A DNA stretch of 54,638 nucleotides from Nitrospira sp. (GTDB lineage Bacteria > Nitrospirota > Nitrospiria > Nitrospirales > Nitrospiraceae). A program made the translations under genes and the position numbers. The notes beneath the pieces were generated by a model, which had not been told where the DNA came from, ran no database searches, and was given only the letters and a program-made list of their open reading frames with translations. The stretch covers positions 1 through 54,638 of the forward strand of contig PLBR01000088.1 of the NCBI GenBank assembly GCA_003135435.1. Direction: 5' to 3'. Positions 27,460 through 31,647 of this stretch are shown piece after piece; position 1 is the stretch's first letter, and every line of letters begins with the position of its first letter.

Positions 27460-30400
27460 TTGATGCCGCAGAGTGAGCCGGTCACCATCCTGATTATCAG
27501 CGAACACGCTGAATCCATTAAACTCATCACCGTCAGTCTGCGCGGATTCTTTTCTGGCTGCCGCGTGGACGTCGCCTACTCCGCCGAAGAAGCCCGTGCA
27601 TGGGCGCCGTCGGACGAATGGACTCTCATCCTCATCGACGAACAATGCCTCGCCGGGGACCACACCTCCCTACTCGGAGAATTCAAACGCCGCGCGCCAT
27701 ATGCAGGGATCATTCTGTACAGCGACCGCTCCGACTCAGCCTCGGCGCTTCAAGCCCTCCAAGCCGACGTTGATTTTTTTCTCTCGAAGAAATCTTCGGC
27801 CTTTCTCACGGAACTCCTGTTCTGTGCCAAGGAAGCCATCGAGAAACGTCACCTGAGAGTGACCCTGGACCATGCGCACGAACGCCATCGTCGGCTCATC
27901 GAATCACTCAGCGACATTGCCTACGAACTGGATGCCAGCAGCTGTTTTGTGGCAGTCAGTCCTGGCATCGTCACACTATTAGGCTACTCCCCCGATGAAC
28001 TCATCGGATTGCCCTATACGACCCTCGTTCCTCCCGGCCAGGAGTCGGTGGCTCGGTATCGCCTCAACGAACGCCGCTCCGGAGCGCGTGGCACCAGCCG
28101 CGTTGAATTGACCTTGCGAGGGAAACCCACGCAGGGCGACAAGCCGCTGACCCTCACGGCAGAGGTCAACGCCAGGGGGCTCTATGACACTCTTCGCCGA
28201 TTTCTCGGCACGGCGGGACTTATCCGAGACCTGTCCCAACCCAAACAACAAGACGCCACGATCCATCAACTTCGCCAACAACTCCGGCGTACGGATGAAC
28301 TACTCGCGCTGGCCCAGCGAGTCACGCTGTTGTCCCAACAGCTGCACGATCCACTGGCCTCACTACTGACACAGTCCCAGCAGCTCCTCACCACCATTCG
28401 CGACGCACGCCTGGACGACCAAGCCGAAACACTCGCCCACCACGCCGCAGAAGCGACGAAACTCGGAGTACAGCTGGCGCAGGCCCTCCACATGAGAGAG
28501 GACGCCTTCGGACATACGATCAACGACATCCTTGACGACGTACTCACGACCACAAGCCCGGCGAGCGTGGATGATGCAGGCATCATACGGCAGTTCTCCT
28601 CGCACCTCCCCCCCCTCGTCGGCGATCGCGAGCAGGTCACGAAGCTCGTTCACCATCTCCTGAACTACGCGCAGACCTATGTGCTTACGATCGGTCGTGC
28701 GCATCGACTCATCGTGAGCACGCGCGCAGTTGGGCCTTCTTCCATTTCAGCAGACACCCCCACACTCTTTCCCCTCGCCCCGCCTACCGAGGTCGAAGTC
28801 GAGCTGCTCGAATCTGACATGGTGTGGCCGGCTGCATCTCAGGCGGCTTCACCCCCGTCTATTGGCCTCCTCGAGTCGTATCAGCTCGTCCGCCAACTGG
28901 GTGGCACTTTGGATTTGTCGGCGCCGATGCAGGGCCCCCTTCGTATAATTCTCCGTCTGCCGGTCGCCTCTCGCCCCTCCCACGAGATGCTCCCGCTGCC
29001 AAATGCCGTCTCTGCCTCCCCGCCTGCACTCGCTCCTGACACGAAGAACGCCGCGACGGTACCTGTTCCGACAGCCGAGTCTGGCAGGCCGCAACAAGAA
29101 CGGCGCCATTCACCTCGAATTCAAACTACCCTGCCTGCCGCGATCACCGTCGGGTCAGCGACCTGGGATGGCACTATTTCCAACCTCAGCGTCGGCGGCA
29201 CCTGCATTACACTCCCCAACGACTTCCCCACCGTCGTGCCACAAGATGCCTATGTTGAACTCAAAACTGCTGTGGGAATACTCGAACTGCAAGGTGAGGC
29301 GCAGGAACGGCCCTTCTCGCTCCCTTCCGGAACGCCGGTTACCCATCTCGTCGTAGCATTTAATTCGCCCAAGCGAGAAGAGGCCGCCGTTCTGGCCTCG
29401 CTGGTCCAGGCTGCGCAGGAACAGACGTTGCCCTTCTCTCTTGGAGTACTGCTTGCGGCAGGGCCGCAGATCGAGCTGACTGCCACCGACCCCCTCGTAC
29501 CAAACGAGCGTGAAGGGTTCGACCTGCGCGAGGCGGTTCGGGTGGTCGTGAGACTCCCAGTCCAGCTCGATGTGATGGACCATAGGGGGCGCCCTCACCG
29601 CCTGGCGGCGCTGACCACTAACCTCAGCCGTGACGGTGCCTGTCTTCACCTCAACGCTCGCCCTGAACTCCTGAGCGGCCTCGCTACGCTACACTTTGCC
29701 GCCGCACAGACCCAGATCCACCCCGGGACCCATGAACCAGGCGCGCCCGACTCCGCACTCCCCGCCCGGATCATCTGGTCGGCTCCGGATCACGCAGCGC
29801 CCAGCGAATTTCGTGACCAAGGCTCCGACCCTGCCCTTCGGGTCGGCCTCCGCTTTCAGGGCCTCACACCCTACGCTGAGCGCGAAGTGAACCGTGTCGT
29901 CCGACAACATCTGACGTCCCCTGACGAATCGGAATCCTCCTCGCAGCAGGCGTCGGTCGTCAGTATTCCGCGTGAGTGCCGAAATCCACGCGGCCAGGCG
30001 ATTATGATCACCGACGACCATCTTCGCCAGTCGCTCGCACCAAACACACCGGTCGTCATCATCGCTCCAGGCTATGGCCAGACTGCGTTGGATGCCATGA
30101 TCTTGGCGTACTACTTGGCGCATTACCGGCTCCGCATCTTGCGTTACGACCACACCAACCACGTGGGGCTGAGCGACGGCGAGCTGCAACAGACGACCTT
30201 ACGGAGCATGCAAGCCGACCTCCTTAAAGTTGTGGAGTTTGTGCAACATACCTGGCCGGCCGCTCCCTTGATCGTCATGGCGAGTGACATGACCGCACGG
30301 GTGGCTCTCAAGATGGCGGTGCAATCCCGTCCCCTCGACCTGCTTCTCCTGATCAATCCGGTCGTAGATATTCAGGCCATGCTCATGACGGTCCATGGTC

Positions 30401-31647
30401 ATGACCTCGTGGCCGACCACCGATACGGACTCCGACGCGGCATCGCCAATCTGCTCGGTCTCAACGTCAATATCGATCGCTTCGTCGGCGATATTGTTGC
30501 AGGCCACTTTACGGATCTGGCCTCCACGATTGCGGATCTGCGCCTCCTTCGCTCTCCATCAGCCATTATCACGATTCCTAGCAACCCGCTCAGGCCATTG
30601 CCTCCGGCTGACCTCCCTCAGGCATTTCTCACCGCGCTGGGAACCCATACCCGTCTGGCAACCGTCTCCGCACCGCTGATCAGCCAGGATTTCCCACTCA
30701 ACGAACAACACCCCCCAGCCTTCCGACAGATCATGGAGCAGATCGCCGCAACCGTTTCGCTGCCGACCATTCCGGCTGAATTCCGCGCACACACCCGTCA
30801 CATGCTGGCCCGTCAACAGCGCATCGAAATGGAGCGCACCCGTCTTCGCCACAATCTCTCGCAGATCACGCGTGAAGCCTTGAGGGTCGCGCACCTGCAG
30901 CAGCTGCCCCAACTCGGGAACCTCCATGAGCACTGGAAGCTCTTGGACGATCTCTATCGACTGCTCAGCCCGCTCGAACCCGGCTCCATGCTCGTGGACG
31001 TGGGAGTCGGCCACGGCGATTTGCTCCAGGCCATGATGGTGAACCAGACCTACCGCTCACGACAGCATGGATGGAGTCCGGAGCGTCCCGTTCACGTGAT
31101 CGGACTGGGACATTTTCAAGACTCGCTGACGCAGGCCCGACAGAGTCTTCGTGCCTTCCATCGGGAACTCGACAGCGACTTCGCAGGCACACTGACAGTC
31201 CACCCCCCCCTGACCACCGAATGGGTGCACACGGATTGGACGCAAGGCCTTCCGTTCAAGGACCGCTCCCTCCATCGCATCGTCTGCAATCTGTCACTCC
31301 CGTTCGTCTCCTCTCCACTGTTCACGATTCGGGAGCTGTACCGCATGCTCCATCCGCAGGGGCGCCTGGTCCTCGCGGTCTTCCACCCCGATACCGATCT
31401 CTCGGTGCTCTATCGCCGGCACCTGCACAGAGCGAGTCAGGATGAATTTAGTCCACAAGCCCAAATCGTCCTGCACTACCTGGGGCGGCTCCGAGAGGCC
31501 ATCCGGCATGGATTGCTGCACACCTTCGACCGCCCCTCACTGGCCTCGTTCCTCCAGCAAACCGGCATCCTCACACCCCGTATCCTTCCTGCGCTCGATG
31601 GGCATGCCCTCTTTGCAGTCATCCAAAAAGGTAAATCCGCTAGCTGA
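27460..31647 (+). CDS. Multidomain signalling protein: REC, PAS, degenerate histidine kinase, two PilZ, LuxD-like alpha/beta hydrolase, methyltransferase
   Basis: REC 'LILIDEQCLAG'; PAS 'FVAVSPGIVTLLGYSPDELIG'; PilZ motifs 'RHSPR...NLSVGG' and 'REAVR...NLSRDG'; LuxD-like 'RYDHTNHVGLSDGE'; MTase 'MLVDVGVGHGDLL'. Confidence 0.8.
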   Translation: MMPQSEPVTILIISEHAESIKLITVSLRGFFSGCRVDVAYSAEEARAWAPSDEWTLILIDEQCLAGDHTSLLGEFKRRAPYAGIILYSDRSDSASALQALQADVDFFLSKKSSAFLTELLFCAKEAIEKRHLRVTLDHAHERHRRLIESLSDIAYELDASSCFVAVSPGIVTLLGYSPDELIGLPYTTLVPPGQESVARYRLNERRSGARGTSRVELTLRGKPTQGDKPLTLTAEVNARGLYDTLRRFLGTAGLIRDLSQPKQQDATIHQLRQQLRRTDELLALAQRVTLLSQQLHDPLASLLTQSQQLLTTIRDARLDDQAETLAHHAAEATKLGVQLAQALHMREDAFGHTINDILDDVLTTTSPASVDDAGIIRQFSSHLPPLVGDREQVTKLVHHLLNYAQTYVLTIGRAHRLIVSTRAVGPSSISADTPTLFPLAPPTEVEVELLESDMVWPAASQAASPPSIGLLESYQLVRQLGGTLDLSAPMQGPLRIILRLPVASRPSHEMLPLPNAVSASPPALAPDTKNAATVPVPTAESGRPQQERRHSPRIQTTLPAAITVGSATWDGTISNLSVGGTCITLPNDFPTVVPQDAYVELKTAVGILELQGEAQERPFSLPSGTPVTHLVVAFNSPKREEAAVLASLVQAAQEQTLPFSLGVLLAAGPQIELTATDPLVPNEREGFDLREAVRVVVRLPVQLDVMDHRGRPHRLAALTTNLSRDGACLHLNARPELLSGLATLHFAAAQTQIHPGTHEPGAPDSALPARIIWSAPDHAAPSEFRDQGSDPALRVGLRFQGLTPYAEREVNRVVRQHLTSPDESESSSQQASVVSIPRECRNPRGQAIMITDDHLRQSLAPNTPVVIIAPGYGQTALDAMILAYYLAHYRLRILRYDHTNHVGLSDGELQQTTLRSMQADLLKVVEFVQHTWPAAPLIVMASDMTARVALKMAVQSRPLDLLLLINPVVDIQAMLMTVHGHDLVADHRYGLRRGIANLLGLNVNIDRFVGDIVAGHFTDLASTIADLRLLRSPSAIITIPSNPLRPLPPADLPQAFLTALGTHTRLATVSAPLISQDFPLNEQHPPAFRQIMEQIAATVSLPTIPAEFRAHTRHMLARQQRIEMERTRLRHNLSQITREALRVAHLQQLPQLGNLHEHWKLLDDLYRLLSPLEPGSMLVDVGVGHGDLLQAMMVNQTYRSRQHGWSPERPVHVIGLGHFQDSLTQARQSLRAFHRELDSDFAGTLTVHPPLTTEWVHTDWTQGLPFKDRSLHRIVCNLSLPFVSSPLFTIRELYRMLHPQGRLVLAVFHPDTDLSVLYRRHLHRASQDEFSPQAQIVLHYLGRLREAIRHGLLHTFDRPSLASFLQQTGILTPRILPALDGHALFAVIQKGKSAS

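What the first reader, a model, noticed from the sequence alone, without database searches (positions are those of the whole stretch)
27460..31647. Single polypeptide joining REC-PAS-kinase, two PilZ domains, a LuxD-like acyltransferase fold and a methyltransferase
One uninterrupted 1395-aa frame carries a REC domain with its Asp (LILIDEQ), a PAS region, a histidine-kinase-like section, two PilZ modules that keep both c-di-GMP contact motifs (RHSPR/NLSVGG and REAVR/NLSRDG), an alpha/beta-hydrolase region resembling LuxD myristoyl-ACP thioesterase (RYDHTNHVGLSDGE vs LuxD RYDSLHHVGLSSG; TARVAL vs SARVAY), and a C-terminal SAM methyltransferase (VDVGVGHGDLL). I know of no described protein with this order. 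Inference: a c-di-GMP-responsive hub linking signalling to acyl or lipid chemistry.
Basis: partly seen in the sequence, partly recalled or inferred. Interest (0 to 1): 0.88.

Follow-up and report, generated by a model that had tools for sequence, protein, structure and literature searches.

The report
Dead-enzyme c-di-GMP receptor in Nitrospira
A giant Nitrospira protein strings together signalling domains, two c-di-GMP-binding PilZ domains and an enzyme pair whose thioesterase half lost its catalytic residues long ago but is still strictly conserved, so it most likely works as a signal-reading regulator of its neighbouring genes rather than as a lipid enzyme.

Summary
The 1395-aa frame at 27460-31647 is real, with REC, PAS, kinase-like, two PilZ, LuxD-like alpha/beta-hydrolase and SAM-methyltransferase segments in that order. 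It is not a misassembly: 104 full-length homologues (52-90% identity) come from Nitrospira-type genomes and metagenomes. The acyl-chemistry inference fails for this protein. LuxD Ser114 aligns with Asp943 (Asp in 104/104 homologues), and the triad Asp and His are gone too, whereas over 200 relatives keep a Ser-Asp-His type triad. The kinase-like part has lost its phosphoacceptor His (103/104), and the methyltransferase's SAM-ribose acid is Gly here. Both PilZ motifs are intact. The hydrolase's N-terminal half is nevertheless the most constrained part of the protein (dN/dS 0.06-0.16), so it looks like a functioning pseudoenzyme. Active relatives sit beside a multi-pass membrane histidine kinase; in the window clade that kinase lost its membrane half, and a block gene-HK-NtrC-HD-GYP is conserved, with a sigma54 promoter (GG-N10-GC, 22/27 loci) before the HD-GYP gene. 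Best reading: a c-di-GMP receptor and pseudoenzyme that tunes the adjacent HK/NtrC pair, which drives a c-di-GMP phosphodiesterase. Anatomy and triad loss are well supported; the regulatory step is inferred.

The parts
27463..31647 (+). The whole gene: REC-PAS-pseudokinase-PilZ-PilZ-pseudoLuxD-methyltransferase, 1394 aa from ATG
   Evidence: 104 full-length homologues
27481..27798 (+). Receiver-like domain, residues 8-113; phospho-acceptor Asp60 (102/104) and Lys110 (95/104) kept, acidic pocket pair replaced by Ser14-Glu15
27880..28239 (+). PAS domain, residues 141-260
28234..28965 (+). Degenerate histidine-kinase module, residues 259-502: DHp-like helix hairpin with Gln293 where the phosphoacceptor His should be, and GHKL-like domain without recognisable N/G1 boxes
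29092..29424 (+). PilZ domain 1, residues 545-655; RHSPR and NLSVGG motifs kept (R549, R553, G580 104/104; N575 100/104)
29515..29919 (+). PilZ domain 2, residues 686-820; REAVR and NLSRDG motifs kept (R690, R694, S723, G726 104/104; N721 98/104)
29962..30774 (+). LuxD-like alpha/beta-hydrolase pseudoenzyme, residues 835-1105
30286..30288 (+). Codon of Asp943, at the position of catalytic Ser114 of LuxD
   Evidence: Asp in 104/104 window-clade homologues, Ser in nearly all relatives outside the dead clade
30922..31629 (+). SAM-methyltransferase fold, residues 1155-1390; GxGxG loop kept, acidic SAM-ribose residue lost in this protein (Gly1217)
31761..33038 (+). Histidine kinase (HisKA + HATPase), 425 aa; matches the C-terminal half of the membrane PrsK-like kinase found beside active relatives, membrane half missing
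33052..34479 (+). NtrC-family sigma54 response regulator
34630..34645 (+). sigma54 -24/-12 promoter TGGAACAAGAATTGCT before the HD-GYP gene
   Evidence: GG-N10-GC in 22 of 27 loci, usually 153-155 nt after the NtrC stop
34680..35831 (+). REC-HD-GYP response regulator, predicted c-di-GMP phosphodiesterase
27417..27432 (+). Possible sigma54 promoter before the main gene (TGGGACTGGACTTGCT); seen only in close relatives, weak
25140..26027 (+). SnoaL-like protein with N-terminal signal-like segment, syntenic in the block
26024..27109 (+). Probably secreted His/Met-rich protein of unknown family, syntenic in the block

Best explanation
This is a cytoplasmic c-di-GMP receptor built from retired enzymes. 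The two PilZ domains bind c-di-GMP (inferred from intact motifs). REC and PAS add further inputs. The kinase-like, hydrolase and probably methyltransferase domains no longer catalyse; they act as binding and relay modules. Its output is most likely protein-protein control of the adjacent histidine kinase and NtrC regulator, in the manner of NifL on NifA. NtrC, with sigma54, switches on the HD-GYP phosphodiesterase gene, which lowers c-di-GMP and closes a feedback loop. Shown here: the anatomy, loss of the hydrolase triad (nucleophile probably lost once), strong constraint on the dead domain, the conserved gene block, and the conserved sigma54 site. Inferred: c-di-GMP binding, the partner, and the direction of control.
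For: Nucleophile Asp943 in 104/104; triad Asp position has no D and triad His position no H at the aligned columns. Ser-Asp-His in nearly all relatives outside this clade (116 Ser and 3 Cys of 119 in the outer family). A tree built without the triad columns puts all 43 nucleophile-lacking rows on one side of one branch (support 91), rooted among triad-bearing rows (two changes in the tree with those columns). LuxD N-half dN/dS 0.06-0.16, the lowest of all domains. Kinase H-box His lost in 103/104; PilZ motifs near-invariant. Order gene-HK-NtrC-HD-GYP conserved in seven genera; sigma54 site before HD-GYP. The genome has rpoN and about nine GGDEF genes. Two loci lack the HK yet keep this gene beside NtrC (L094, L095). 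The residue 1-545 model also matches the NifL-NifA complex (9qq6).
Against: No binding, enzymatic or genetic data. The fold match to NifL is generic to PAS-kinase proteins. The methyltransferase keeps its GxGxG loop, and about half the homologues have Glu rather than Gly at the ribose position, so SAM binding or methyl transfer is not excluded. Receiver Asp60 and Lys110 are kept, so phosphorylation is possible. Gene adjacency does not prove physical interaction.
Confidence: 0.5

Rival explanations
1. Ligand sensor: the retained alpha/beta-hydrolase pocket (and perhaps the methyltransferase) binds but does not turn over a small molecule such as an acyl chain, acyl-ACP or SAM, and reports it to the HK/NtrC pair; c-di-GMP is a modulator.
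For: N-terminal hydrolase half most constrained while the half that carried Asp and His is relaxed; RYDHTNHVG loop nearly invariant; GxGxG SAM loop mostly kept; related active proteins are LuxD/thioesterase-like.
Against: No ligand known; the constraint could equally reflect a protein interface; the SAM acid is Gly in the window protein.
Confidence: 0.25
2. Active enzyme: a c-di-GMP-gated acyl transferase/thioesterase plus methyltransferase, using Asp943 as an unusual nucleophile or acting only as methyltransferase.
For: Fold is LuxD-like; Asp943 invariant; some alpha/beta hydrolases use an Asp nucleophile (general knowledge); a sister group has Asp at the nucleophile with triad Asp and His kept.
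Against: Window clade has no His or Asp at the triad positions; other dead-clade members have Gly or Asn as nucleophile; SAM acid lost in this protein.
Confidence: 0.12
3. Regulatory subunit of an active paralogue: the dead protein pairs with an active copy.
For: One genus (g20) carries two copies in 25 of 27 genomes; in five of them both were read and one is triad-intact, the other dead.
Against: The window genome, 99.8% complete, has no second copy or other LuxD-type protein; in the five g20 genomes read the two copies lie far apart.
Confidence: 0.05
4. Decaying relic of an enzyme with no remaining role.
For: Catalytic residues lost in several domains.
Against: Intact frame in more than 100 homologues, dN/dS well below 1 in every folded domain, invariant motifs.
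Confidence: 0.03

Closest known systems
LuxD myristoyl-ACP thioesterase (Vibrio harveyi, PDB 1tht; Pfam PF02273)
   Same: Alpha/beta-hydrolase fold, RYDxxxHVGLS loop, ARVA after the nucleophile elbow.
   Different: Ser114 replaced by Asp943, triad Asp and His absent, no lux genes, 48.5 bits against the LuxD equivalog cut-off of 420.
NifL (PAS-pseudokinase controlling the sigma54 activator NifA)
   Same: PAS plus histidine-kinase-like module, near an NtrC-family sigma54 activator; structural match to 9qq6; NifL H and GHKL domains, PMC8219145.
   Different: The window protein adds REC, PilZ and two enzyme folds; its NtrC has its own receiver and a cognate kinase; no evidence of direct binding.
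PrsK-PrsR, RpoN-linked exopolysaccharide/PEP-CTERM two-component system (PMC9850573)
   Same: Neighbouring HK and regulator are of this general type: TIGR02916 114.6 bits, TIGR02915 435.7 bits.
   Different: Both below their cut-offs (300, 502.6); the HK lacks the membrane half.
YcgR and other PilZ c-di-GMP receptors
   Same: Complete RxxxR and [DN]xSxxG motifs, PilZ-like barrels in the model.
   Different: Two PilZ domains fused to a pseudokinase and pseudo-LuxD/methyltransferase; different gene context.
PhcB methyltransferase / PhcS kinase fatty-acid methyl ester signalling (Ralstonia, PMC11960443)
   Same: Lead only: active relatives put a thioesterase-like plus methyltransferase protein directly before a membrane histidine kinase.
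   Different: No sequence test against PhcB was made; the window protein is not the active form.

Membership tests
LuxD / Acyl_transf_2 (PF02273) | Sequence profile above curated cut-off | tested here: met
   50.5 bits against 20.3
LuxD thioesterase (functional) | Ser-Asp-His catalytic triad | tested here: not met
   Asp943 at the Ser position; N/S at the Asp position; S/G at the His position
LuxD equivalog (NF052253) | Equivalog score | tested here: not met
   48.5 bits against 420
PilZ (PF07238) | Profile above cut-off and RxxxR plus [DN]xSxxG in each domain | tested here: met
   50.8 bits against 22.5, two stretches; motifs near-invariant
PilZ c-di-GMP receptor | Binds c-di-GMP | not testable with these tools
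   needs ITC or equilibrium dialysis
Sensor histidine kinase | Phosphoacceptor His in the H-box | tested here: not met
   Q 81, R 17, K 3, E 2, H 1 of 104
Sensor histidine kinase | HATPase N and G1 boxes | tested here: not met
   no Pfam HATPase match; boxes not recognisable
Response regulator receiver (PF00072) | Phospho-acceptor Asp, Lys, acidic pair | tested here: inconclusive
   Asp60 and Lys110 kept, acidic pair is Ser-Glu; 30.5 bits against 30.2
Class I SAM methyltransferase | GxGxG loop and acidic residue after strand 2 | tested here: inconclusive
   loop kept; acid is Gly in 45, Glu in 56 of 104, Asp in 119/119 outer relatives
NifL-type anti-activator | Physical control of a sigma54 activator | not testable with these tools
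   fold match and gene order only

The most novel reading that the evidence does not exclude
The related active proteins are c-di-GMP-gated synthases of a lipid-type signal (LuxD-like hydrolase plus SAM methyltransferase in one chain) whose product is sensed by the membrane histidine kinase encoded immediately downstream. This would be a so far undescribed signalling family in Nitrospirota. In the Nitrospira clade of the window the synthase lost its catalysis as the kinase lost its membrane sensor half, turning a secreted-signal circuit into an internal c-di-GMP switch.
Probability: 0.2. Interest if true: 0.8.

Novelty: new variant of a known kind. Interest (0 to 1): 0.58.

Why it matters
Nitrospira are key nitrite oxidisers and include complete ammonia oxidisers, and how they use c-di-GMP is little described. 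This names a conserved regulator with a testable circuit (receptor, HK, NtrC, sigma54 promoter, phosphodiesterase). It also gives a natural series from active enzyme to pseudoenzyme, in which loss of the catalytic triad largely goes together with loss of the neighbouring kinase's membrane sensor.

Tried and rejected
Misassembly of separate genes: rejected by 104 full-length homologues from independent assemblies. Active LuxD enzyme: triad absent. An active paralogue elsewhere in the genome: none. sigma54 sites by pattern count in the window alone: no excess (3 found, 3.3 expected); only conservation across loci made the HD-GYP site convincing, and the site before the main gene stays weak. The named-genome scan found only close relatives plus one PAS-only match. 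Literature on PilZ with LuxD, or PilZ and methyltransferase in Nitrospira: nothing held. No sequence comparison with PhcB was possible.

Full report
Observation. The frame 27460-31647 is uninterrupted; the ATG one codon in is the likely start. AlphaFold2 models residues 535-1395 with good confidence, and Foldseek's best match is LuxD, 1tht. Residues 1-545 model less well but as REC, PAS, helix hairpin and a GHKL-like domain, and match PAS-histidine kinases.

Not a misassembly. A search of 5.8 billion proteins returns 104 full-length homologues at 52-90% identity, and named loci are from Nitrospira assemblies.

The enzymes are dead or degraded. LuxD Ser114 aligns with a Ser in active relatives and with Asp943 here. 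In 104 homologues Asp943 is invariant, and none has the triad Asp or His at the aligned positions. Relatives outside this clade keep Ser-Asp-His; in the outer family 116 of 119 have Ser, 3 have Cys, and all have His. A sister group of about 1190 aa has Asp, Gly or Asn at the nucleophile but mostly keeps Asp and His, so the loss looks stepwise. On a tree built without triad columns the nucleophile-lacking proteins form one side of one branch (support 91); with those columns the tree needs two changes. The kinase-like part has lost the phosphoacceptor His in 103 of 104. The methyltransferase keeps GxGxG but has Gly (45) or Glu (56) in place of the Asp seen in 119 of 119 outer relatives, so its status is open.

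Yet it is under selection. Nei-Gojobori dN/dS against eleven relatives is 0.06-0.16 for the hydrolase's N-terminal half, the lowest of the domains, and 0.16-0.5 for the half that carried Asp and His. The PilZ motifs are near-invariant.

Architecture through the phylum. The core is hydrolase plus methyltransferase, 549 aa and free-standing in a distant member (L100). Others add a PilZ, or an SRPBCC domain, at the N-terminus; one is from an Omnitrophica genome. In Nitrospirales 120 of 192 genomes carry the core. REC-PAS-PilZ-PilZ-core proteins of about 1180-1280 aa follow, and the window clade is longer, with the pseudokinase. In genus g20, 25 of 27 genomes have two copies; in the five where both were read, the short one keeps the triad and the long one has lost it.

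Gene context. Triad-intact copies are followed directly by a histidine kinase with several predicted membrane segments, even in distant families. The window clade sits in a block RNaseH-PP2C-SnoaL-unknown-THIS-HK-NtrC-HD-GYP-RecN. The HK there aligns to the C-terminal half of the membrane kinase (54.6% identity to residues 556-957 of L111's) and has no membrane segment. L111 and L109 are intermediates: the block with a triad-intact protein and the membrane kinase. L094 and L095 lack the HK but keep NtrC. L045, with Asn at the nucleophile, is an exception with a PrsK-like kinase two genes on.

Regulation. Upstream of the HD-GYP gene a sigma54 site (GG-N10-GC, often AGGAAY-N3-AATTGCT) is present in 22 of 27 loci, usually 153-155 nt after the NtrC stop, while flanking sequence diverges. 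The genome has rpoN and GGDEF genes.

Mechanism. Most likely c-di-GMP binds the PilZ domains and the protein adjusts HK/NtrC activity; NtrC and sigma54 then drive HD-GYP, which degrades c-di-GMP. The binding, the partner and the sign of control are inferred. A ligand-sensing variant of this reading is the main rival.

Known versus new. The domains are all known and the closest named proteins are LuxD, NifL, PrsK-PrsR and PilZ receptors. The combination, the phylum-wide core family and the pseudoenzyme series were not found in the papers searched.

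Noticed in passing
L088:6716-11827 (G090): A 1703-aa frame fuses the dead protein to the AAA+ and HTH part of the NtrC regulator, with HK and receiver missing and the Walker A motif altered; a natural deletion or an assembly error.
   Followed up: partly
L045:2159-3757: A FabH-like beta-ketoacyl-ACP synthase III lies between the core gene and a PrsK-like kinase in genome G034.
   Followed up: no
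window 26024-27109: Probably secreted His/Met-rich protein, no Pfam or PDB match, 65-92% identical beside this gene in nearly every block.
   Followed up: partly
whole genome G000: No ammonia monooxygenase (PF02461) although 11 of 31 congeners have it; the window organism is probably not a complete ammonia oxidiser.
   Followed up: partly
P0253-P0358: Core proteins with an N-terminal SRPBCC/polyketide-cyclase domain (PF03364), one from Candidatus Omnitrophica, pointing to acyl or polyketide chemistry for the active family.
   Followed up: no
L047, L048, L112-L114: In family f3 the active copy sits next to an EF-G-like GTPase gene, and the copies scanned lack the PilZ binding motifs, the reverse of the window clade.
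   Followed up: partly
whole genome G000, contigs C134 and C127: Two exosortase-type (8TM_EpsH) genes, so a PEP-CTERM system that a PrsR-like regulator could control may be present.
   Followed up: no
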